A stretch of DNA of 45,967 nucleotides from Thermomicrobiales bacterium (GTDB taxonomy: Bacteria > Chloroflexota > Chloroflexia > Thermomicrobiales > UBA6265), in contig JAGQGU010000014.1 in NCBI GenBank assembly GCA_020432165.1, positions 1,174 through 47,140 on the forward strand, written 5' to 3'. Position 1 is the stretch's first letter. Each line of letters starts with the position of its first letter. Positions 12,814 to 39,934 of this stretch are shown piece by piece. The notes beneath the pieces were generated by a model, which made no database searches, had not been told where the DNA came from, and saw only the letters and a list, made by a program, of their open reading frames with translations. The position numbers were made by a program, and so were the translations under genes.

Positions 12814-13077
12814 TCATCCCGACTTCGTCTGCGAGTAGAGTCCCGCCGCCGCGAGGCCGTAGACCAGGCCGGCCAAACACCAGCTCGCCAGCGTTGGTAA
12901 CGAGAGGCTCTCGTCGCGAGCGATGCCACCGAGAAGCATCAACACAATCGCACAAACAATTGCGGCCAGTCCGGCGAAGCGTACCGGTAATCCCAACTGC
13001 TTGGCGATCTCCACCAGAGCCGGCGTCACAATGGTGATGGAGACACCCGTAACGAGTTCCACAGTATCCATAGTCAT
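12814..13077 (-). CDS. Putative phage holin (three membrane segments)
   Basis: An 87-residue hydrophobic protein with predicted membrane segments at about 8-24, 31-52 and 62-80 and a polar C-terminus (YSQTKSG). It directly follows the amidase gene with an ATGA overlap and has GGAGG seven bases upstream of the ATG at 13077. Size, topology and position match a holin that lets the neighbouring endolysin reach the wall. Holins share little sequence, so the call rests on context. Confidence 0.68.
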   Translation of the reverse strand: MTMDTVELVTGVSITIVTPALVEIAKQLGLPVRFAGLAAIVCAIVLMLLGGIARDESLSLPTLASWCLAGLVYGLAAAGLYSQTKSG

Positions 13078-14066
13078 CACGCTGCCTCCTTTCTGGACAT
13101 CGCGAGGATGTCATCGACACCAAAATCGGTGCCACCACTCCAGACACGCCAGAGCAGATCCGTCGGCAAGCCCCTGCCCATCACCCACCAGAGTGGATTC
13201 CCCTCCACGGTTTCGCCCACAATCCAGCCGCGTGCATAGAAGCTGTTGCCTGCATTCAACATGCGCATGATCGGTTGATTGGTCTCGGCCCATTTACGCG
13301 CATTCAGTTCGTCAACCGTCACCGTCACCAGGAGTGGCTGCCGAAGCTGCATCATCGTCCCGAAGGCGGGTATTCCCACCGGTTTGGCGGAAGAGATGGA
13401 AACCACATTCGATTCCACCAGCACTCTCTGAACGCCATGAACCACTCCCTGCGCTGCTCTCTCGAAGAAGCCGGGACTCTTGATGATGTCTGCATCGCCG
13501 GTGATATTGCCGAGCTCCAACACCAGTCGCACCAGCCGATCTCGCGCAACCGCGGTGTAGCCGAACATGGCCAGGCGGTAGCCCTTGCTCCCGACACCTG
13601 TCTGGCGCTCACTCATGACGCCAGGTAGCTTTACTCCGGACTTACGAAGACTGGGGCCGGTGGCCGCACTCACCTCTCGCGTGATTGCGAGCGCATAGCT
13701 CTGATCGAGCGTATTGGTTCTCCAGGCATCGGAGCCGAGATACGGGGAGACCGTGCGTAAGCCATCGCCATCGGGCACGATCGCGAAGACTCCACGGGTA
13801 TTGTTGGCATCGCCTTCGAAATGCACATCCAGTAGCAGATCGTAGGGGGCGAGGTTGTGCCTGCGCACAACCTCCCGGCCAACGGCATCGAGAGAACCCT
13901 CGAACCAATCGTTATCGTTCTGCACCATATCGGCGATATGACCGGCGGCCCGCAGGGCTTTCTGGATGGCGCGGGCGGCGATCGGTGTGATCGCGATCTC
14001 GGCGGGATTTCCACCGGTGGTATTGCGATGTCCCTGCGCGATAAGGACACGAAGTTGCTTTGTCAT
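13077..14066 (-). CDS. N-acetylmuramoyl-L-alanine amidase (phage endolysin-like)
   Basis: The N-terminal domain is an amidase_3-type zinc hydrolase: VLIAQGHRNTTGG gives the first His, DLLLDVHFEGDANN gives the second His, and VRLVLELGNITGDADI gives the catalytic Glu (about residues 179-194). These enzymes split the bond between muramic acid and L-alanine in peptidoglycan. The C-terminal region from about residue 215 (VTVTVDELNARKWAETNQP, then FYARGWIVGETVEGNPLWWV) looks like an SH3-type wall-binding domain. There is no signal peptide, as expected for a holin-dependent endolysin. Upstream is the virion protein gene (3-bp gap), downstream the holin gene. Confidence 0.85.
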   Translation of the reverse strand: MTKQLRVLIAQGHRNTTGGNPAEIAITPIAARAIQKALRAAGHIADMVQNDNDWFEGSLDAVGREVVRRHNLAPYDLLLDVHFEGDANNTRGVFAIVPDGDGLRTVSPYLGSDAWRTNTLDQSYALAITREVSAATGPSLRKSGVKLPGVMSERQTGVGSKGYRLAMFGYTAVARDRLVRLVLELGNITGDADIIKSPGFFERAAQGVVHGVQRVLVESNVVSISSAKPVGIPAFGTMMQLRQPLLVTVTVDELNARKWAETNQPIMRMLNAGNSFYARGWIVGETVEGNPLWWVMGRGLPTDLLWRVWSGGTDFGVDDILAMSRKEAA

Positions 14067-14069
14067 GAT

Positions 14070-15998
14070 TTAGACCTCCACGAGATTAAGGGTGATGGTG
14101 CTTTGGCCCCAACGATTGCTATCAGCGGGTTGGTTGACGGCCTCGGAGATGCCGACGATACGGACCGTGCGGGTAACGGGATCGGTGTCGTAATCGATAT
14201 CCCGGAAGGTCATGGGGGTATCGGACTCCCAGGCCTGCCACAAATCTTCTGTCAGCTGACGACCGGTTTTCGCCAGGCGTGCGCCATCCCGATCGACTTC
14301 CTGATCACGGGCGAGCAGGCGCAGATTCCACTTCCTGCGCCGGGCCGGATTATCCAGAACCTCGTACTCCACCCACATCGAGGAGAGAATCGGAGCCCAA
14401 TCCACCACGCTACTCCAGCGGATGCGGAGCATGATGAAGCGACTGGTGATGCCGGAAAGCGTTGATTCCATAACGAAATTCATGTTCGGCAGGGTGTTCC
14501 CGACCTTGCTGGTGGACTGTACGGATATCCAACTAGCTCCAGCATCGATGGAGTAGTCGAGTGCGACATCAACACTATCGGTGCTGGTGGTGTTACCGAC
14601 GCGCACCGGTGAGGCGAAGACGCACCCAAGCTTGCGCCAGGCCTTGGTTTTATCCCGCTCCCCAGCATCGAGCATGGAGGTGATGGCCTGACCGCTGGTG
14701 GGGTAGCTGGTGAGATAGGTGCCATCCGAATGCCACTGATCCGCCAGCCGGTACGTGCGATAGTCGTTGGTGCCATCGACCATCACCATGACGTTGTTAT
14801 AGGCACCCACACTGTTGCTGCTAAACCCGCTGCCGAGTGGGAGCGGGTTACACCAGGTGCCGGTAGCACCAGGTGCGGGCATGGCCTGACGATCGATACA
14901 CCACCAGCCTGTGCCGTCGTAGGCCCAGAGCTCGTTATCGCCATCCTCCGACTCGATGCTGACGACCAGGTAGCCAGCGGCCACGGTGCCACCGAAGCAG
15001 CGACGACCGTTCAGGCCAGTGCTCTTCCAACCAGCGCGATCGCCGGCGGGGTTGTACTCCTGCACACCACCAGCAAGCCAGCTGAAGATACGACCACCGA
15101 AGCCAGCGAAGATGCGGTAATCGTCCCGCTCGGAGTAGACACCCTGCTGGTAGAAGGGCTCGTACTCGCCCGACCACTCCATGCCCGGGATCTGTGCCGG
15201 CTGCGAACCACCGACCGTGTAGGCCGGATTGTTGATCATGATTTCCCGCACGCGACCTGCGTAGCGATAGATGGCCTGCCTGGTGATGATGTAGGCGTAG
15301 GCATCGGCCACGGTGAGGGCGATGGGATCGTGATCGATACGGCGGATATCGATACCGCCACCGTGCACCTGGCGCAGCACCGTGGGGCGCGAGGCCGTGC
15401 GGGCGTCGTCCCAGATGGCATAGCCAGCGTAGGCGGTGAGGTGGAATGCACGCTCGCCTGCGGACAATACGGTTTCGGTGCCAGCCGAGAGATTGCGCCA
15501 GATGATGTCCGCAGCGGAACCGAAGCCGATGAGCACACCGACGGACCCGTAGATGCAGAGATCGGTGATCACATCGGGGTAGGTCTTCACCAGGGACGTA
15601 CTGGTGACGGCACCGACACCGTCCGTGGAGACACCAGCGTAGAGCGATTTGCCGACCGCGAAGTAGAGGCGGTTGCGGACAATGGCAAAGGGGATGGCGG
15701 TATCGCGATTCGGTTTGTCCAGCGCGGCCATGGCGGAGATCGATGTGCTGCGCTGATAGGGCCAGGGGGTGACGCCCTGGCTGCCCAGGGCGGGACCGAT
15801 GGCGAGGGAGTCGCCGAGCTTGTCTTTCTCAAGCTGGAGGTGACGATGTTGGCCGCCGATGAAGTCGGTGATGGTGGTGCGATCGGTGCGGCCTTCGGGG
15901 AATCCTTCCTGGAGGCGTTTGTAGCCTGGGGAGGATGGCGAGCCGGGATCGATCATGTAGCCGTAGTTGTTGAGAATGATGTCAGTGGTTTGAGGCAT
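14070..15998 (-). CDS. Large phage virion protein (tail or nozzle-like, probable beta-propeller)
   Basis: A 642-residue protein I cannot assign to one family. The first part has repeated strand patterns with aromatic-rich turns (RNRLYFAVGKSLYAG, ADAYAYIITRQAIYRYAGRV, RIFAGFGGRIFSWLAGG, ELWAYDGTGWWCID), consistent with a beta-propeller. The last 150 residues form another strand-rich domain (YSIDAGASWISVQSTSK, FIMLRIRWSSVVDWAPI) ending in a phage tail-like segment (DTDPVTRTVRIVGISEAVNQ). Its place between the capsid-connector genes and the lysis genes fits a tail, nozzle or receptor-binding protein. Start at 15998: ATG with AAGGA upstream; the frame is open further but crosses the hairpin at 16028-16048. 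Confidence 0.62.
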   Translation of the reverse strand: MPQTTDIILNNYGYMIDPGSPSSPGYKRLQEGFPEGRTDRTTITDFIGGQHRHLQLEKDKLGDSLAIGPALGSQGVTPWPYQRSTSISAMAALDKPNRDTAIPFAIVRNRLYFAVGKSLYAGVSTDGVGAVTSTSLVKTYPDVITDLCIYGSVGVLIGFGSAADIIWRNLSAGTETVLSAGERAFHLTAYAGYAIWDDARTASRPTVLRQVHGGGIDIRRIDHDPIALTVADAYAYIITRQAIYRYAGRVREIMINNPAYTVGGSQPAQIPGMEWSGEYEPFYQQGVYSERDDYRIFAGFGGRIFSWLAGGVQEYNPAGDRAGWKSTGLNGRRCFGGTVAAGYLVVSIESEDGDNELWAYDGTGWWCIDRQAMPAPGATGTWCNPLPLGSGFSSNSVGAYNNVMVMVDGTNDYRTYRLADQWHSDGTYLTSYPTSGQAITSMLDAGERDKTKAWRKLGCVFASPVRVGNTTSTDSVDVALDYSIDAGASWISVQSTSKVGNTLPNMNFVMESTLSGITSRFIMLRIRWSSVVDWAPILSSMWVEYEVLDNPARRRKWNLRLLARDQEVDRDGARLAKTGRQLTEDLWQAWESDTPMTFRDIDYDTDPVTRTVRIVGISEAVNQPADSNRWGQSTITLNLVEV

Positions 15999-16018
15999 GG
16001 GTAGTCTTGTCCTTGATG

Positions 16019-16048
16019 AAAAGCAAAATCCGCACAATGTGTGCGGAT
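16019..16048 (-). terminator. Hairpin with T-rich tract before the large virion gene
   Basis: On the minus strand ATCCGCACA pairs with TGTGCGGAT around a 3-nt loop, followed by TTTGCTTTT. The stem ends 29 nt before the ATG of the virion protein. It looks like an intrinsic terminator but sits inside the block, so it may be an attenuator or an mRNA-processing/stability hairpin. Confidence 0.6.
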
Positions 16049-16075
16049 CGGGTTTGTTGGCGTATTTCCGGGATG

Positions 16076-16366
16076 CTATCTCCTCCGAAATTCTGTATGG
16101 CGATAGACCCGCCGACAGCGACAGTGGTCGTGCACGGGCGGTGTGAATCCTTCGCCCTCCGGCCAAATCTCGCCGGAGAGCTGTCCACAAATCGGACAGG
16201 TGCGTTCATCCTCCGCTGTTTGCCACATCTCGTACCGGATGGGAACCAGCGCCTCCAACACCTCTCGCGTTTGCTCGCCTGCTATCTGCCCGAATCGGGA
16301 GATGGCGGAGGCGCGAGCCGGTATAGATTCCCGCACCGCAGCACCCAACATCTGACCGAGATTCAT
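16076..16366 (-). CDS. Short MuF/SPP1 gp7-like minor head protein fragment (zinc motif)
   Basis: This 96-residue protein carries the C-terminal signature of phage Mu F-like (SPP1 gp7-like) minor head proteins: EDERTCPICGQLSGEIWPEG followed by PPVHDHCRCRRVY (about residues 55-88), with the C-x-x-C and H-x-x-C-x-C zinc-type ligands. Full MuF proteins are usually 250 residues or more, so only the terminal part plus one helix (RASAISRFGQIAGEQTREVL) remains. It overlaps the connector gene by 4 bp and is probably co-translated. It could be a shortened working form in a reduced particle or a relic. Confidence 0.72.
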   Translation of the reverse strand: MNLGQMLGAAVRESIPARASAISRFGQIAGEQTREVLEALVPIRYEMWQTAEDERTCPICGQLSGEIWPEGEGFTPPVHDHCRCRRVYRHTEFRRR

Positions 16367-17004
16367 CGTTCCTCTCCTTCGGCAAACGATCCCGCCCGGA
16401 GACGTTGTGTGCGTCGCAAGAACATGTTATCGGCATCGGCCTGGGCCGTTCGGGCGGCCGCGGCCAACGGATGCACACCACTCCGACCCGTGTAGCGCTT
16501 ACCCTCGGCAATTGCTCGCCGATTGAGGGCAGTCGCCAGCGTGAGGGAGACGAGGAGATCCTCATCGTTCGGCTGAATATCAAGTTCCGTCAGATCGTCT
16601 TCCGGTGGCACGCGATGCACCATATGCTCAACTCGCCACACCCCGCTACGGGTGACCACGCGTCCGAGCAACATTGCGCCCGCCCAGGTACGCCAGGTGA
16701 ACCCACTATTGCATCCGGGTGCTGGTGGGGCATCGGTACCACCTTCCCATCGCGGTATGAGCTGGCCGGTATCATCAAAGACCCGCACCACGCGCAGGAC
16801 ATTCACATCATCCGGCATAGGAATCTCCTGATCGCCAGCCAGCACGGCTACAGAGCCCACCGCCTGGCGGGGTAGGTGTGTCCCATAGCGGCGTATACTC
16901 TCGGCGATAGCATCATTCAGAAACTCGTCTGACCAAAGCGGATCGGGTCCGTGATCCTGTAATCGGGCGCGCACCATTTCGCGCAATTCTGGTCGAGTGA
17001 TCAT
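16363..17004 (-). CDS. Putative phage head-tail connector/adaptor protein
   Basis: A 213-residue protein beginning ITRPELREMVRARLQDHGPD, then WSDEFLNDAIAESIRRYG, a pattern seen in phage adaptor proteins that bind below the portal. A strand-rich middle (VLRVVRVFDDTGQLIPRWEG; MLLGRVVTRSGVWRVEHMVH) and helical end (LVSLTLATALNRRAIAEGKR) follow. It is placed between portal and the MuF-like protein, and overlaps both by 4 bp, which supports a head-completion role. I recognise the type by layout and context rather than a strict motif. Confidence 0.65.
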   Translation of the reverse strand: MITRPELREMVRARLQDHGPDPLWSDEFLNDAIAESIRRYGTHLPRQAVGSVAVLAGDQEIPMPDDVNVLRVVRVFDDTGQLIPRWEGGTDAPPAPGCNSGFTWRTWAGAMLLGRVVTRSGVWRVEHMVHRVPPEDDLTELDIQPNDEDLLVSLTLATALNRRAIAEGKRYTGRSGVHPLAAAARTAQADADNMFLRRTQRLRAGSFAEGEER

Positions 17005-18443
17005 ACGGAAGCTCCTTTCACCAATGGTTCAGCGGACATCTGACGAAGTTCGGCATCGGGATCGTGTTCGCCCAGGATGCTCATGGCAGAACGTCGGCTT
17101 AGCAGCCCGTTCTGCACGCGTTGAACAGTTGTGCGCACCGAGGCTTCACCATCGCTCGGCAGAATCGGTGGCCAGATGGAGATCGGTGTCCCGAAACCGG
17201 TGGTGTCCATCTGCAGGTATTGCTCCATGAAGCGAATCATCAGTTGCGCGCGTTGGGTAAGGGCAGCATCCCATTGCCGTCGCTTCCGCTGCACCTTCTG
17301 CACCAGCGGTTGAATCTCCACCTCCAGGGCTGCGCCACTGAGATCGCGGCCGCTATCACCAAAGGCGGTTCGCGGTGTTTCGCTGAGATCGTGCAGAACC
17401 CGGAAGAGCAGATCCATATATTGAAGATGCACATCGGCACCGCCGCCCTGAAGCAGATCCAGCAAATAGGCGCGGGCACCCTCGGGTAATTCCCAGCGGG
17501 CGCCGGGGCCAATACGAATACCCTCCGTACCGTCGACTCCTTCCAGCACGGTGATCGGCGCACCGGAGAGATCAAGGATGTGACTAAAGGTCTGCATCCG
17601 CCGATTGATCTCCGTACACACCGGAATAAGATCGACCAGATCGCTCTGACCCCAGAACTGATCGGGCAACGGATCGTTCGCGATGATCACATACGGAATC
17701 AATCTATAGGGGTTGGGCATATCCACCACTTTCTGGCCGTCGACAAACAGGCGCAGTGAGGTGGTGCTCCACTCCTCCATCGTTGGCAGCGGCTTGTCGG
17801 CATCAAGCGCGAGATCCACCTTGATACCGAATTGCTCCCGGAGTTGACGTGGCGTGGCCTGGTAGAGATGCCGTACCACCTGCACCGCCCGTGGATTATC
17901 CGGCGCGGTCTCCACCGTGAGACTGGCGGGATTCACGGCCACAACTGCTGGCTGCTGCAGAGCATGGTTCCAGGTAATTTTCATGGCGGCATCACCCTGA
18001 ATCAGGGCATCAGTTGCCAGTGCAATATCGAAATGGGTGAGACCAAGGGCATCGCGCCAGGCATTCAGTTGCTGTTCGGCGCGGTTGGCGTTGGTATTAG
18101 CATCGGCGGCAATGGCGATGCCAACAGATCCGCTGAAGATATAGCTCACCGTCTTGCGGAGCAGCGTGCGCGCGTAGTTTAGCGTGAAGGCATGATATTT
18201 CTGGTCGCCCTGCTGCCAGCCCTCGGCATAGGCAGAGTATTCCAGATAACGTTGCAGCCGGGCATCGTCTGCGGGTGTGCGTGTGCCCGGTGGCCAACTG
18301 CGACCGATAGCGGAGTGGCCAATAGCGGTGATATTCACTGGTGTGAACCATCCTTTCCTGACGGCGGTAGCCGTAAATGAACAGGCGAAAGAGAATGGAT
18401 CAGCTGCTGCAGACGAGGTCGTGAACCCGTGTTGCCGCGCCAC
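17001..18443 (-). CDS. Phage portal protein (SPP1 gp6-like)
   Basis: The portal forms the twelve-fold ring through which DNA enters the capsid. Recognisable stretches are NYARTLLRKTVSYIFSGSVG, the long segment PYVIIANDPLPDQFWGQSDL and LIPVCTEINRRMQTFSHILD (about 250-300), and the helical GRDLSGAALEVEIQPLVQKV typical of SPP1 gp6-like portals. Length of up to 480 residues is normal. The start is uncertain: the frame opens with GTG at 18443 without a good ribosome site, and a GTG further in (giving VNITAIGHSAIGRSW) follows AGGAAAGG. It is the first gene of block A, behind a LexA-like box and the 18-bp element. Confidence 0.85.
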   Translation of the reverse strand: MARQHGFTTSSAAADPFSFACSFTATAVRKGWFTPVNITAIGHSAIGRSWPPGTRTPADDARLQRYLEYSAYAEGWQQGDQKYHAFTLNYARTLLRKTVSYIFSGSVGIAIAADANTNANRAEQQLNAWRDALGLTHFDIALATDALIQGDAAMKITWNHALQQPAVVAVNPASLTVETAPDNPRAVQVVRHLYQATPRQLREQFGIKVDLALDADKPLPTMEEWSTTSLRLFVDGQKVVDMPNPYRLIPYVIIANDPLPDQFWGQSDLVDLIPVCTEINRRMQTFSHILDLSGAPITVLEGVDGTEGIRIGPGARWELPEGARAYLLDLLQGGGADVHLQYMDLLFRVLHDLSETPRTAFGDSGRDLSGAALEVEIQPLVQKVQRKRRQWDAALTQRAQLMIRFMEQYLQMDTTGFGTPISIWPPILPSDGEASVRTTVQRVQNGLLSRRSAMSILGEHDPDAELRQMSAEPLVKGASV

Positions 18444-18481: not shown

Positions 18482-18493
18482 GAACATATGTTC
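18482..18493. promoter_or_regulatory. LexA-like box (GAACATATGTTC) at the head of phage block A
   Basis: GAACATATGTTC is a perfect GAAC-N4-GTTC palindrome, extended to AGAACATATGTTCT. This matches the consensus of Gram-positive-type LexA (SOS) boxes. It lies between the 18-bp promoter-like element (18507-18524) and the first possible portal start (18443). Repression by LexA is inferred; no lexA gene is in the window. Confidence 0.65.
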
Positions 18494-26482: not shown

Positions 26483-27919
26483 TCAACCGTCGGTGCCGGT
26501 GGCAATGCGCGGACGGAGATCGACCTCGTCCAGCGCGGCACAAAGTGCGGCGCTCAGCACCAGATCATCGTGACCAACGGCAGCCGGTACACCCCACTGC
26601 ATGCTATTACCCGGGCCACCACGCACGCTGTATTCGGTGGCGGCCAGCTGGGCGTAGTACTCGGCGGTAATGTCCTCGTTATCGTCTGCGTACTCGGTAA
26701 AGCGACCGGTTTCGATCAGACTGACGAAGTCCCACCCAAGTGCACTTTTGCTGGCGGCGGTGAATGTGAAGGGAATCACGCGCACACCGCTGCGGCGCAG
26801 ACTCGTCTCCAGAAAGCTGGTAATGCCCGCACCGATACCGGTGGCATCGATCACGATCCAGCTCGCCTTCCATATAGATGTCGCCAGATGCACGATATGC
26901 GCGTGTAGATCCGTGTGGCGGATACCGGTCCAGGCGCGCCGATCCACCACGCGATAACGTGGTCGGCCATCGCTGCGTTGCTCGATCTCAACTACCGTCA
27001 ATGCCGTGCTATCCCGACGGCTGGTGCTGAAACTGGAGAGATCGCCACCCTGCTCCTCCTCGCCAGCGATATCCAGAAGCAATGCATATTTCTTGCCGGG
27101 CGTGGCGCTGTATTGACGCGGATGGTTTCCGCGCATGAGCGCGATCCGTTGCGGCGGGAAGAGACTCTGCTGTCCATCCAGTTCCTCAAGAAAGTACTCG
27201 GTGCGCACAAAGGGATGCTGCTCACCAAGCTGGGCGATACGACTCTGCACGCGTGTGCCATAGGCGGGGACATCCCGCGCGACCCGCTGCCATGGCACGA
27301 GAAAGAGGCGCTTGTGGCCATCCTCATGCTCGCGTTGGTGGAGATAGGCCATTTGCCGTGCCAACAGCGTATGTTTGGTCCAGACCGTGCCCATGAAGAT
27401 GGTGGTGGCATTGGTGGAGGCTGCCATCGGATCGAAGACAGCATCCCACGTGGCCGGGCGGATATCTTGCGCCTCGTTCGCGATCAGACCGAGATCGGCG
27501 GTGAGTCCGCGGGCATTGGCCGTGCGGGCGGCGCTGACGAAGATTGCCTGGGCATTCCCAACCGTAATCGCGCGATCCCGCACGGTCGTGAAGGGTGCGG
27601 TGAGCTCGTTCGCCAGCAAGCGATCGCGCAGGCGATCCCGGCTGATCATCGCTTGTGGACGCAGCGTTGGTGCGGCAATGACGAGGTTCCCACCCCGCTC
27701 CATATTGCGTAACAGCACCCACGCCAAGACCTGTGCGAGGACTTCATCCTTGCCCGATTGTCGACTGAAAACCATCGCCAATTGCTCGCCACTGCGCGTA
27801 TGCAGGTGATGCGCCAGCGTGCGTGCCGCCTCGATTTGGTAGGGACGCAGCGATTTGCCAGGCATGGTCAGCGCGCTGAAACGCTCGATATCGCGCAGGG
27901 CATCGCGAAGCGCGCTCAC
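26483..27919 (-). CDS. Phage terminase large subunit
   Basis: TerL packages DNA into the capsid. The ATPase half shows RPYQIEAARTLAHHL, Walker A MVFSRQSGKDEVLAQ, and a Walker B-like LGLIANEAQDI followed by the coupling motif TTIFMGTVW. The nuclease half shows the RNase H-like acidic motifs: YALLLDIAGEE, WIVIDATGIGAGITSFLE and GHDDLVLSAAL. Length (478 residues) is normal and the frame is intact. The usual Walker B Asp is Asn here (A-N-E). It overlaps the small XhlA-like gene upstream by 4 bp. Confidence 0.9.
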   Translation of the reverse strand: MSALRDALRDIERFSALTMPGKSLRPYQIEAARTLAHHLHTRSGEQLAMVFSRQSGKDEVLAQVLAWVLLRNMERGGNLVIAAPTLRPQAMISRDRLRDRLLANELTAPFTTVRDRAITVGNAQAIFVSAARTANARGLTADLGLIANEAQDIRPATWDAVFDPMAASTNATTIFMGTVWTKHTLLARQMAYLHQREHEDGHKRLFLVPWQRVARDVPAYGTRVQSRIAQLGEQHPFVRTEYFLEELDGQQSLFPPQRIALMRGNHPRQYSATPGKKYALLLDIAGEEEQGGDLSSFSTSRRDSTALTVVEIEQRSDGRPRYRVVDRRAWTGIRHTDLHAHIVHLATSIWKASWIVIDATGIGAGITSFLETSLRRSGVRVIPFTFTAASKSALGWDFVSLIETGRFTEYADDNEDITAEYYAQLAATEYSVRGGPGNSMQWGVPAAVGHDDLVLSAALCAALDEVDLRPRIATGTDG

Positions 27920-28107
27920 AGCACGATCCTCAGGAGAACATCGGTAATGATGCTGCCGATGACGAGATAGAAGAGATTATCGATACGATTGCGGATATCC
28001 GCGAGATCGGCTGCCATATGCTCCACACGTTCACGCGTGACGACCTCGTAGGTGCTGCGCGGTGCGAGCTCAATTGGCTGATCGGTGGTGGTGATCTGCG
28101 CTACCAT
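27916..28107 (-). CDS. Small XhlA-like phage membrane protein
   Basis: A 63-residue protein with an amphipathic helix (VTRERVEHMAADLADIRNRI) and a C-terminal membrane helix (LFYLVIGSIITDVLLRIVL). This is the layout of XhlA/hemolysin-like phage accessory proteins that act with holins. The sequence match is by pattern only. It sits between the small helical protein and TerL, overlapping both, so it belongs to the same transcript. Confidence 0.55.
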   Translation of the reverse strand: MVAQITTTDQPIELAPRSTYEVVTRERVEHMAADLADIRNRIDNLFYLVIGSIITDVLLRIVL

Positions 28108-28340
28108 GTGGACTCTCCTTCCTCGGCGGAGACTTCCGCCAGAAGCTTGCGAATGGTGCTTTGGGATTCCGGTTCAGCATCGGCGCTGAGCGCGGCCTGC
28201 ACGCGGGCGGTGGTGACGGCTGTTGCGACGACGCGAGGAACGTGCTTGCAGAGCGTCTCGAGATCCGATATCTCCGCCATCAGGCGGGAGAGGATTTCGC
28301 TCAGCGCCGCGCGCTCCGCCGCGAGAGGTTGTGTGGGCAT
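28101..28340 (-). CDS. Small helical protein at the head of phage block B (possible small terminase)
   Basis: A 79-residue, mostly helical protein (PLAAERAALSEILSRLMAEI, then LLAEVSAEEGESTW) that I cannot assign to a family. It is the first gene behind the 18-bp element and two genes before TerL, the place where a small terminase subunit would normally be. No clear helix-turn-helix is visible, so this is only a positional guess; a chaperone or accessory role is equally possible. AGGAG lies six bases before the ATG. Confidence 0.5.
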   Translation of the reverse strand: MPTQPLAAERAALSEILSRLMAEISDLETLCKHVPRVVATAVTTARVQAALSADAEPESQSTIRKLLAEVSAEEGESTW

Positions 28341-28391: not shown

Positions 28392-28519
28392 CCAACAACC
28401 CCGTGGATATCGGCGTCATTCCGGGAATCTCCATACGCCATCCATACACCCCGAAATCCATACTGCAATCAACAACTGCAGAGGGGTTCGCCGGATTTCA
28501 CATCCAGAACATTCATTCC

Positions 28520-28531
28520 GAACGAATGTTC
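28520..28531. promoter_or_regulatory. LexA-like box (GAACGAATGTTC) between block B and the small membrane gene
   Basis: A GAAC-N4-GTTC palindrome. It also forms part of a larger inverted repeat, GAACATTC (28507-28514) and GAATGTTC (28524-28531). It lies about 130 bp behind the 18-bp element and 20 bp before the TTGACA of the divergent small membrane gene. Confidence 0.55.
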
Positions 28532-28551: not shown

Positions 28552-28586
28552 TTGACATGTGGTCACAAGTATGAGAACATGTGTTC
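28552..28586 (+). promoter_or_regulatory. Promoter with overlapping LexA-like box for the small membrane gene
   Basis: TTGACA at 28552-28557 is followed after 17 bp by GAACAT at the -10 place. That hexamer is part of the box GAACATGTGTTC (28575-28586). A repressor bound here would block RNA polymerase directly, as in classical SOS genes. The start codon lies about 90 bp downstream. Confidence 0.6.
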
Positions 28587-28671
28587 GTACACCCCGATAG
28601 GTGATCCGGAACACGCGGGGCGCAAACCTGACTGATTGAACGAGCCGGCGAACCGGCAGAAGGAACTGACC

Positions 28672-28896
28672 ATGACAGATCTGCTGCTGAACAGCTTCCT
28701 GGTGCTGTTGACTATCCTCTTCGGCGCCATGGCCTACTATCCGCTCTTCCTGAAAGGGAACGACACCCAGACCGAGACGATCGGCGAGGACCGTGTGATC
28801 AGCGTGATGCCGAAGGGTATGGAGCCCCAGGCTCCCACCCGCATCGGCAGCATCCGCCCGGCGGACGAGCATCCGGGTCACATCCCGGCGGCGTAG
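28672..28896 (+). CDS. Small single-pass membrane protein, putatively SOS-controlled
   Basis: A protein of about 74 residues with one N-terminal membrane helix (LLLNSFLVLLTILFGAMAYY) and a hydrophilic tail rich in Pro and acidic residues. I know no family for it. The ATG at 28672 is preferred over 28636 because AGAAGGAA lies upstream. Two LexA-like boxes precede it, one over its promoter. It is divergent from phage block B. It could be a damage-induced division inhibitor (as small SOS membrane proteins such as YneA are) or a lysis-control protein for the phage genes; both are guesses. Confidence 0.6.
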   Translation: MTDLLLNSFLVLLTILFGAMAYYPLFLKGNDTQTETIGEDRVISVMPKGMEPQAPTRIGSIRPADEHPGHIPAA

Positions 28897-29001
28897 CCTC
28901 GTCATGCTGAGGCAACGCCGAAGCATCTCGACGATAGCGGATACTATGAATCCGCCGCGCTGAATGTGATGCGCGGCGGATTAGCGGTTAAGGAGTCCAT
29001 C

Positions 29002-29361
29002 ATGGAACCACACTGGATCGATGAACGCATTGCCTCGCTCCCCGGGACATCCACCGAGCACAAGCCCGCCTGGGGATCCATGCTCTACCGTGTCGGCGAC
29101 AAGATGATTGGTATGCGCGGCACCTATAAGGATGGTCGCCCGATTCTCACCATCAAGCTCCCACCCGCCCAGGGTGAACTACTGCGAGAGACCTACGACG
29201 CCATCATTCCCGGCTACTACAGCAACAAGGTCCACTACAACTCGGTTTTCCTGGACGCTGGTTTCGATGATGCATTCATTGGGGAACTGATTGAGGATGC
29301 CTACGACTGCGTCTTCGCCACCCTGACCGGGAAAGCGCAGAAGGCGATCACGGACGTGTAG
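29002..29361 (+). CDS. MmcQ/YjbR-like protein
   Basis: The 119-residue protein has the MmcQ/YjbR pattern: EHKPAWGSMLYRVGDKMIGM, RPILTIKLPPAQGELLRETY, IIPGYYSNKVHYNSVFLDAG and a C-terminal helix IGELIEDAYDCVFATL. The family has a CyaY-like fold and is thought to bind DNA, but no function is proven. AAGGAG stands six bases before the ATG at 29002. It may follow the small membrane gene in one transcript; a short CTCGTCATGCTGAGG repeat-like sequence (28898-28912) lies between them. Confidence 0.82.
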   Translation: MEPHWIDERIASLPGTSTEHKPAWGSMLYRVGDKMIGMRGTYKDGRPILTIKLPPAQGELLRETYDAIIPGYYSNKVHYNSVFLDAGFDDAFIGELIEDAYDCVFATLTGKAQKAITDV

Positions 29362-34540: not shown

Positions 34541-35230
34541 CTATTTTAGATTGGATTTTCTATCACGATCCTTAATCGCGAATAGGGCCCCTTCTGGAAG
34601 CTCATCATAAAGTGCTTCAATTTCTCGGGGTTTTGCAATCGCCTCATCTACAATAAGGTTCAGAAGGCCGAAGATCTTGTGCACCGTGATCGGATCTTCT
34701 TCCATATTAAGTTGACCTGGATGTACTGCACGGTTTCCTGTAATTCTTAGGATGTCCATTGCTTTGATTACTCGATCCGGTACACCAGCTGTTTGCAAAG
34801 TGCCAATCATCTGATTAATCGATCCTTTTGTTCCGGTTAACTCTTCGCAAAGCATCTGTAAAGCCAACCTAATCAAAGCACCAGCAGCTCTAGGAGAAAC
34901 TCCAGCAACACTCCGAGCTTCTAGATATTGGTTCTGGATATCTGGGGACATATCTTTATGAGGTAATGGAATGTTTGCATCTGTGGGAGGAAATAGGAGT
35001 CGATCGCCACTGTCAAAGAAACACAATCCTCCACATACACAGCATTCTCGGATCGTCATGTTTCTGATCCTCGTCATTGGTGCCCCGCTGTATATGGTTG
35101 GTGCCTGAGTAACGGTACTTGCATTAACATTGACAACCAATTGCTGGGCGAATGCCCCACAATACGGACAGTCGAATGCTCCTACTGATGAGTCAGAAGT
35201 GGGTTTCACAAAACTAAGCATGCCAGACAT
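34541..35230 (-). CDS. DUF4145-like protein with zinc-ribbon start
   Basis: A 229-residue protein that opens with a zinc-ribbon pair (FDCPYCGAF at about 19 and ECCVCGGLCF at about 62). It continues with a helical DUF4145-like domain: NQYLEARSVAGVSPRAAGAL, IRLALQMLCEELTG and the ITGNRAVHPGQL segment. Such domains are often found in defence-associated and restriction proteins. It is AT-rich compared with the host genes and convergent with the coiled-coil gene, which points to acquired DNA. Start ATG at 35230 has no strong ribosome site. Confidence 0.72.
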   Translation of the reverse strand: MSGMLSFVKPTSDSSVGAFDCPYCGAFAQQLVVNVNASTVTQAPTIYSGAPMTRIRNMTIRECCVCGGLCFFDSGDRLLFPPTDANIPLPHKDMSPDIQNQYLEARSVAGVSPRAAGALIRLALQMLCEELTGTKGSINQMIGTLQTAGVPDRVIKAMDILRITGNRAVHPGQLNMEEDPITVHKIFGLLNLIVDEAIAKPREIEALYDELPEGALFAIKDRDRKSNLK

Positions 35231-35452
35231 TTTTTGCCACCTGTTCAGCCGAAATCCTTGGATAGCATATTCTACTTTCCTTATTCTAGGTTGTTGACTG
35301 GAGAGTCAGTTGTAGGCTGGATGACTCAACTAAAGACTGAACATTATTCCATTTGTAGATGGAGGTTGTGGAAACCAGATAGGATAGTTCATCATCAACT
35401 CACCGCGCCTATGAGCTATAGATTGCATCCGCCTAGTTTTAGGATCATCTGA

Positions 35453-35566
35453 AAAACTCGAAGACACCCCAAGCCGATTTCTCGGCCTGGGGTTCCCCGA
35501 TCCCCGGGCATAAAGCCCGAGGCTACATTTGCATTGGTCACCGCATATCAAATGCGGGGCTACGGG
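35453..35566. repeat. Cluster of hairpins behind the capsid gene
   Basis: CCCCAAGCCGA/TCGGCCTGGGG (35467-35491) forms a long stem. On the minus strand it is followed by tgtcttcgagttttt, so it may end transcription of block C. GGGC-ataaa-GCCC and CCGCAT-atcaa-ATGCGG (35541-35557) follow, joined to GAGGCTAC and GGGGCTAC strings of the palindrome family. The remainder of 35231-35452 shows no gene. Confidence 0.55.
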
Positions 35567-35568
35567 CG

Positions 35569-36456
35569 TTACGCTGTAATCCCTTCCAACTTGGCAGCCC
35601 CCAATGTATTGAATAGCGCCAGGCCGCAGTACCACTTCAGCCGGGTTCGGGTGGCATCCTTGGTCTCCAGTTCGCCGACGCGTTCGACGGTGATGCCGTT
35701 GTGTTCCAGACCCATCACGCCGCTGCCTTGACCGAACTTGACGGCGTAGATGGTGCTCAACCCGCTTCCGCTGCCAAGCGTGCGGGCATCCGAGATGAAA
35801 TCGTCGATCACAATCGGGATGCCATCATAGAACTCCACCTGCTGACCGAACTGGTTAATCCCGCTTTCCAGCACGGTGCCGGAGCTCCGACGCAGATCCT
35901 TCAACTTGCGTCGGGTGCGCTTGCTCATGAAGAGCGCCTCCGGCTTGCCCGGCTTCACCTTGTCGATTAGCTCGTCCATCATCGCCAGCGTCAATGCCGC
36001 CCCGTTGGCGCCAGCCAGCAGCGTCTGCCCTACCGGCACGAGCTTGTGCAGACCATCGAAGCTCTTGGCATTCACACCGATATCGCCATTGAAGAAGGAA
36101 TCACTGAATCCGTGCGCGATCGATTTCGCCCGGTTGCCAATGACCTCCGCCTCGATATCGTTGGCGTCGGCATAGGTCGCCTGGAGGAAGTTATCGACAT
36201 CGGCATCGCCACCCAGAATCGTGAGTTGCGTGGTGGCCTGGGTAAAGGTGGGTGTGCCCTCTGTCCAGGTATCGCCGGGGATATAGAAGTTTGCCGCAGC
36301 CATGGTGGCCTCGCGGTTATAGGTGACGCTGGTACCGGTCACCTGCAGGAAGGGGAGGTAGTTCAGCACTGCGCTCTCCTTAACAACGGTTTCGATGACT
36401 CCGCGCTGGAGCATATCGTTGCTCAGCTTGGCGGCTTCGGATTTGGTAATAGCCAT
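35569..36456 (-). CDS. Phage major capsid protein (HK97-like)
   Basis: A 295-residue capsid protein. It begins AITKSEAAKLSNDMLQRGVI, has the N-arm/E-loop part with LPFLQVTGTSVTYNRE and EGTPTFTQATTQLTILGGDA, and the P- and A-domain pattern LMMDELIDKVKPGKPEALFM, SKRTRRKLKDLRRSSG and FYDGIPIVIDDFI. This is the layout of HK97-fold major capsid proteins. The start at 36456 follows GAAGGAG; the frame is open to 36528 but crosses a hairpin. Nearby is a scaffold-like gene and no protease, so maturation may rely on a separate scaffold. Confidence 0.85.
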   Translation of the reverse strand: MAITKSEAAKLSNDMLQRGVIETVVKESAVLNYLPFLQVTGTSVTYNREATMAAANFYIPGDTWTEGTPTFTQATTQLTILGGDADVDNFLQATYADANDIEAEVIGNRAKSIAHGFSDSFFNGDIGVNAKSFDGLHKLVPVGQTLLAGANGAALTLAMMDELIDKVKPGKPEALFMSKRTRRKLKDLRRSSGTVLESGINQFGQQVEFYDGIPIVIDDFISDARTLGSGSGLSTIYAVKFGQGSGVMGLEHNGITVERVGELETKDATRTRLKWYCGLALFNTLGAAKLEGITA

Positions 36457-36475
36457 GAGATGTTTCTCCTTCTGT

Positions 36476-36505
36476 AAAAAAACAGCATCGCCCACGTGGG
36501 CGATG
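36476..36505 (-). terminator. Hairpin with seven-T tract before the capsid gene
   Basis: On the minus strand CATCGCCCAC pairs with GTGGGCGATG, then gctgttttttt. The stem ends about 30 nt before the capsid ATG, inside block C. A second hairpin (GGCGCAC/GTGCGCC, 36552-36570) lies just upstream. The gap matches the one before the large virion gene at 16019-16048. Either attenuation or an RNA-stabilising role is possible. Confidence 0.65.
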
Positions 36506-36580
36506 TGATGATGTGGTTCACCGGGCACGAGACCCAGATGTCACTGAATAGAGGCGCACCGCGTGTGCGCCCCGATGCTC

Positions 36581-39809: not shown

Positions 39810-39934
39810 CGCGACACGACTCCGATCCGCGATTGCCTGGAATCAACCCAAACATTAACCCTTGCCAACTTCAGGACCTGCGGTACACTCAAATGCCGGG
39901 CCAACACTGGTCGCACACCCTCCCGGAGCCGCGC

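What the first reader, a model, noticed from the sequence alone, without database searches (positions are those of the whole stretch)
28552..28896. Small membrane protein under an overlapping LexA-like box, divergent from block B
The promoter TTGACA-N17-GAACAT has a LexA-like palindrome directly over the -10, and a second box lies between it and block B. The product is an unassigned one-helix membrane protein of about 74 residues. Small SOS-induced membrane proteins can stop division or help lysis, so it may co-ordinate particle release or division arrest with the phage blocks.
Basis: inference. Interest (0 to 1): 0.62.

Follow-up and report, generated by a model that had tools for sequence, protein, structure and literature searches.

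The report
LexA-controlled one-helix membrane protein, host gene
In an uncultured bacterium of the order Thermomicrobiales, a tiny one-helix membrane protein is controlled by the DNA-damage (SOS) switch through a promoter that seven related genomes keep unchanged, so it is probably the cell's brake on division after DNA damage rather than a phage part.

Summary
Window 28672-28896 (+) encodes a 74-residue protein with one N-terminal helix. A perfect LexA box (28575-28586) covers its -10, a second box (28520-28531) lies upstream, and TTGACA lies between them. Both boxes score like those of lexA, recA, uvrC and ruvB in the same genome. Homologues occur in 7 of 61 genomes searched in the order (4 genera). 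All 7 keep TTGACA-N14-TGN-GAACATGYGTTCGTAC exactly. That pattern occurs exactly nowhere else in the 61 genomes, and every copy keeps a second LexA-like site. The protein is under purifying selection and always ends in -AA.

The tie to phage block B does not hold as a linkage: the gene adjoins terminase only in the window genome and one close relative. In two genera it sits directly before SRAP (YedK/HMCES), an SOS repair gene. In two genera it diverges from an ABC-transporter gene. No phage homologue was found. Terminase and portal operons carry their own LexA boxes, so they share the regulon, not the locus.

Most likely it is a host SOS checkpoint protein working like SosA/YneA/SidA: a short-lived membrane inhibitor of septation. 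LexA control and anatomy are supported by sequence; the division target and turnover are inferred. It is a new family in a known functional class.

The parts
28520..28531 (.). second LexA box GAACGAATGTTC, 55 bp upstream of the -10 box; preceded by the degenerate copy GAACATTCATTC at 28507-28518
   Evidence: same two-site cluster in G003 and, with mismatches, in G001 where no terminase was found adjoining
28552..28557 (+). -35 element TTGACA
   Evidence: identical in all 7 genomes
28575..28586 (.). perfect LexA operator GAACATGTGTTC over the -10 (GAACAT, 28575-28580; extended TGN at 28572-28574)
   Evidence: GAACATGYGTTCGTAC in 7 of 7 genomes
28660..28664 (+). ribosome-binding site AAGGA, 7 nt before ATG
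   Evidence: sequence; a purine-rich AGGA or AGGGA stretch stands before the ATG in all seven
28672..28896 (+). 74-aa one-helix membrane protein (helix 2-27; conserved F17-x-A-M-A, P24, D40, P47; C-terminal Ala-Ala)
28949..28982 (+). 12-bp perfect GC-rich hairpin just after the gene, without a T run; G003 has a hairpin with a T run at the same place, so probably a one-gene transcript
   Evidence: z -3.2 and -2.5
26483..28340 (-). context: divergent phage block B (terminase large subunit 26483-27919, two short ORFs 27916-28107 and 28101-28340); not part of the small-gene unit
18482..18493 (.). context: LexA box upstream of the portal operon, same regulon

Best explanation
This is a host SOS-response gene. 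LexA sits on the -10 and on a second operator upstream, so RNA polymerase cannot start. When RecA senses single-stranded DNA and LexA cleaves itself, the gene is made quickly as a short transcript of its own, or with SRAP in some relatives. The protein inserts by its N-terminal helix and holds up septation through a helix-helix contact with the divisome (FtsW-type target), as SosA, YneA/ChiZ and SidA are thought to do. It is then removed by a protease that reads its conserved Ala-Ala end (a CtpA/Prc-type protease if the tail is outside, a ClpXP-type one if inside). Supported here by sequence: LexA boxes, conserved promoter, translated and selected gene, one helix, conserved tail end, link to an SOS gene. 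Inferred: division block, target, topology, proteolysis.
For: Boxes match a matrix from seven SOS genes elsewhere in the genome. The 39-bp promoter pattern occurs exactly 7 times in 61 genomes, always before this gene, with 0 hits for the reversed control. A second LexA-like site is kept in all seven, upstream by 55-56 bp in the genus and G011, downstream by 25-31 bp in G023 and G009. Purifying selection. SRAP is directly downstream in two genera, and SRAP is a known SOS-operon member (PMC3765255). Among the 20 box sites checked in the genome, no other leads to a comparable short one-helix ORF; the one 42-aa hit overlaps a longer ORF. C-terminal AA in 7 of 7 against 8 of 309 ORFs. The genome has three S41/CtpA-type proteases and two FtsW/RodA proteins. 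Precedent: SosA, 77 aa, one helix, conserved membrane-proximal tail, C-terminus needed for CtpA turnover (PMC6851548); YneA/ChiZ/SosA/SidA act on late division, with binding to FtsW TM7 shown for YneA and modelled for the others (PMC13396833).
Against: No match to any family model, known division inhibitors included, and no LysM domain. No expression, filamentation or topology data exist. Flanking charges do not settle topology. Only 7 of 61 genomes in the order have a recognisable copy, so it is not the universal division brake of the order. SRAP linkage is in two genomes only.
Confidence: 0.5

Rival explanations
1. SOS-induced membrane-active peptide of the TisB/DinQ type: the helix depolarises or stresses the membrane, slows metabolism and favours persistence, with no specific divisome target.
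For: Small, one hydrophobic helix, LexA-controlled; DinQ is an SOS-regulated single-transmembrane toxic peptide (PMC3567139, abstract).
Against: At 74-83 aa it is much longer than TisB or DinQ (under 30 aa, recalled), with a conserved polar tail (D40, P47, terminal AA) that a pure depolariser would not need. Leader length varies from 47 to 249 nt, which gives no sign of a conserved leader control.
Confidence: 0.15
2. Another SOS membrane function tied to DNA repair or envelope stress, such as an anchor or adaptor for SRAP or for the neighbouring ABC transporter.
For: Co-directional with SRAP in G002 and G011; divergent from an ABC-transporter gene in G002 and G009.
Against: Both neighbours are elsewhere in G000 and G003 while gene and promoter stay.
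Confidence: 0.22
3. Lysis or release protein (holin or pinholin-like) of the LexA-controlled phage-derived particle.
For: Next to the terminase block in G000 and G003; shared LexA control.
Against: Not linked to phage genes in 5 of 7 genomes; absent from 33 of 39 terminase-positive genomes; no PHROGs, INPHARED or IMG/VR relative; link to SRAP elsewhere.
Confidence: 0.08
4. Chance ORF beside regulatory DNA of the terminase block.
For: Short, no family hit.
Against: Conserved protein in 4 genera with dN/dS about 0.3 within the genus and a fixed promoter and RBS.
Confidence: 0.02

Closest known systems
SosA of Staphylococcus (PMC6851548)
   Same: 77 against 74-83 aa, one N-terminal helix, LexA-controlled, conserved membrane-proximal tail segment and some conservation at the extreme C-terminus
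   Different: No detectable family relation; sosA has a fixed chromosomal place in staphylococci, this gene does not; function and topology here untested
YneA (Bacillus) and ChiZ (Mycobacterium)
   Same: SOS-induced one-helix division inhibitors; YneA is short-lived
   Different: They carry a LysM domain; this protein has none
SidA (Caulobacter)
   Same: SOS-induced one-helix membrane inhibitor that targets late division proteins
   Different: SidA is much shorter and lacks the long tail (recalled); no family-library relation found
SRAP (YedK/HMCES, PF02586) SOS operons (PMC3765255)
   Same: SRAP follows this gene in two genera, downstream of the same LexA-type promoter
   Different: The SRAP neighbourhoods shown from that paper name polymerases, LexA, Ku, ligase and helicase; the word 'membrane' does not occur in its main text

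Membership tests
LexA regulon of this genome | operator matching those of lexA and recA, placed on the promoter | tested here: met
   scores 22.0 and 18.4 against training 18.8-25.0; random mean maximum 12.8; promoter fixed in 7 genomes
LexA regulon of this genome | LexA binding and damage induction | not testable with these tools
   needs EMSA and RT-qPCR
SOS one-helix division inhibitors (SosA/YneA/ChiZ/SidA class) | single N-terminal transmembrane helix, short protein | tested here: met
   helix 2-27, pLDDT about 87 over residues 1-20, tail disordered; hydropathy 2.1-2.7 in all members
SOS one-helix division inhibitors (SosA/YneA/ChiZ/SidA class) | sequence homology to a known member | tested here: not met
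   no Pfam, NCBIfam or PHROGs match; no direct pairwise comparison was made
SOS one-helix division inhibitors (SosA/YneA/ChiZ/SidA class) | LysM domain (YneA and ChiZ only) | tested here: not met
SOS one-helix division inhibitors (SosA/YneA/ChiZ/SidA class) | extracellular C-terminus | tested here: inconclusive
   flanking charges weak and inconsistent between members
SOS one-helix division inhibitors (SosA/YneA/ChiZ/SidA class) | proteolytic turnover through the C-terminus | tested here: inconclusive
   terminal AA in 7 of 7, S41 proteases present in the genome, no biochemical test
SOS one-helix division inhibitors (SosA/YneA/ChiZ/SidA class) | inhibits septation when expressed | not testable with these tools
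   needs expression and microscopy
Phage holin or lysis protein | relatives in phages or stable linkage to phage genes | tested here: not met
   no relative in PHROGs, INPHARED or IMG/VR; linked in 2 of 7 genomes only
SOS type I toxin (TisB/DinQ) | regulatory antisense RNA | not tested
   only variable leader length was noted

The most novel reading that the evidence does not exclude
A family of Thermomicrobiales runs one SOS programme that both builds phage-derived (gene-transfer-agent-like) particles from LexA-controlled terminase and portal operons and arrests division through this new small membrane protein, so that damaged cells stop dividing while they make particles.
Probability: 0.2. 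Interest if true: 0.72.

Novelty: new member of a known kind. Interest (0 to 1): 0.45.

Why it matters
SOS division brakes are known from only a few phyla and are not homologous to each other. A promoter-defined family in Thermomicrobiales would be a candidate for a lineage where, as far as the papers searched show, none has been described. It also separates a host checkpoint gene from neighbouring phage genes, and indicates that both answer to LexA.

Tried and rejected
Counting one-mismatch LexA boxes in the window: not above chance, so matrix and conservation tests were used instead. Sigma-70 and terminator scans found nothing because the -10 is weak and the hairpin lacks a T run. Looser promoter matches in G010 and G005 lead to unrelated genes, not to diverged copies. 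SRAP genes of the other genomes were searched for a small ORF upstream: only G002 and G011 have it; a 48-aa hydrophobic ORF before SRAP in G007 lacks a good box and was not pursued. Viral collections gave no relative. Family libraries gave only chance hits. Fold search was not run, because the model is one helix plus disorder.

Full report
Observation. The described promoter and ORF are in the sequence at the stated coordinates. TTGACA lies at 28552-28557, then 17 nt, then GAACAT at 28575-28580, inside the perfect palindrome GAACATGTGTTC (28575-28586). A second perfect box, GAACGAATGTTC, lies at 28520-28531, with a degenerate copy 13 bp before it. The -35 therefore sits between two operators. 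The ORF 28672-28896 encodes 74 residues and is preceded by AAGGA.

Are the boxes LexA boxes? The genome has one good LexA. GAACRNNYGTTC occurs at 29 places in 3.2 Mb against 15 for the backward control. The sites include those just upstream of lexA, recA, uvrC, ruvB, an ImuB-like gene, a helicase and a dnaN-like gene (several of these gene names are read from the protein starts, not from a family search; recA is confirmed and LexA). A matrix trained on those seven, none in the window, puts 18482, 28575 and 28520 first among all positions of the window, at scores typical of the training genes. Thirty Markov-random sequences of the same length gave a mean best score of 12.8, one reaching 22.6. 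So each box alone is good evidence, and the pair over one promoter is strong.

Conservation. Protein and profile searches over the 61 genomes searched in the order found seven copies: four species of the genus and one each in three other genera of the family. All seven keep the promoter TTGACA-N14-TGN-GAACATGYGTTCGTAC without a mismatch. Searching that pattern in all 61 genomes gave exactly these seven exact matches, two 3-mismatch matches before unrelated genes, and none for the reversed pattern. A second LexA-like site is always present but moves: 55-56 bp upstream in the genus and in G011, 25-31 bp downstream in G023 and G009; in G001 and G011 the second site has a mismatch. Among G000, G001 and G003 dN/dS is 0.25-0.35. 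The protein keeps F-x-A-M-A-x-x-P in the helix, D40, P47 and a terminal Ala-Ala, while the rest of the tail drifts. Terminal AA was seen in 8 of 309 ORFs of 200 aa or more in the DNA fetched (mechanical ORFs, a rough baseline). AlphaFold shows a helix at residues 2-27 and disorder after it. Three of the relatives are named records: Chloroflexi bacterium UBA6265, Thermomicrobiales bacterium ACE_NR_CHLO14 and Chloroflexia bacterium MGR_bin284.

Host or phage gene? Terminase and portal relatives occur in 39 and 36 of the 61 genomes, mostly one per genome, so the phage-derived module is old and order-wide. The small gene adjoins terminase only in G000 and G003. In G001, G009, G011 and G023 terminase is on another contig; in G002 no terminase was found, but that genome is 72% complete. 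In G002 and G011, two genera, the next gene on the same strand is SRAP, a known member of SOS operons (PMC3765255). In G002 and G009, two genera, the divergent neighbour is an ABC-transporter gene whose homologue lies at 39833 in the window, about 11 kb away. The simplest history is an ancestral ABC | LexA promoter | small gene | SRAP locus, with terminase brought next to it later in part of the genus (inference). No relative was found in PHROGs, INPHARED or IMG/VR. The gene is therefore most likely a host SOS gene, and its place beside block B is incidental to its function.

What remains of the link to the phage blocks. LexA boxes with matrix scores of 18 or more lie upstream of the portal in G000, G003, G001, G023 and G009 and upstream of the terminase operon in G000, G003, G010, G011, G018 and G023, and none reached 9 within 1.2 kb upstream in the other families sampled. 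Particle genes and the small gene thus appear to share a regulator in this family.

Mechanism. The best reading is a SosA/YneA/SidA-like checkpoint protein (see best explanation). The class is defined by how it works, and its known members do not share clear sequence relation, so failing homology tests lowers any claim of family membership but not the analogy. SosA is the nearest in anatomy: 77 aa, one helix, conserved membrane-proximal tail, and a C-terminus needed for turnover by CtpA (PMC6851548). YneA is cleared by CtpA and a second protease (PMC6051672) and binds FtsW by its helix (PMC13396833). The genome here has candidate partners: three S41 proteases and two FtsW/RodA proteins. That these act on this protein is inference. 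Whether the tail is inside or outside is not settled by charge.

Limits. All genomes are drafts, many incomplete; seven homologues from four genera is a small sample; gene absence can be assembly loss. No expression data exist. Gene names for some SOS genes rest on reading protein starts.

Noticed in passing
window 13077-18443, 26483-28340, 34541-36528; L013 8682-15222: Phage head and packaging genes (portal, SU10-like adaptor, terminase, HK97-type capsid) lie in separate blocks among host genes; terminase and portal occur in most genomes of the order, mostly one per genome, which looks like a vertically inherited, gene-transfer-agent-like module.
   Followed up: partly
window 18482-18493; L094, L096, L097, L065, L068, L085, L090: LexA boxes at the heads of portal and terminase operons in several genera of this family, but not in the other families sampled.
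   Followed up: partly
L065 3322-3765, L085 711-1160, L090 1429-1932: In other genera the terminase operon starts with a 147-167 aa ORF with a zinc-finger-like start (GCGRFV..G..FC..H), absent in this form from the window.
   Followed up: no
G000:C87:17360-18010 (L047): A second SRAP copy in the window's genome has its own LexA box (GAACATATGTTC at 18059-18070).
   Followed up: partly
L022 1804-2022; L053 3269-3871: Unassigned ORFs directly after strong LexA boxes in the same genome; candidates for further SOS genes.
   Followed up: no
window 29002-29361: A YjbR-family protein gene lies directly downstream, past a strong 12-bp hairpin.
   Followed up: no
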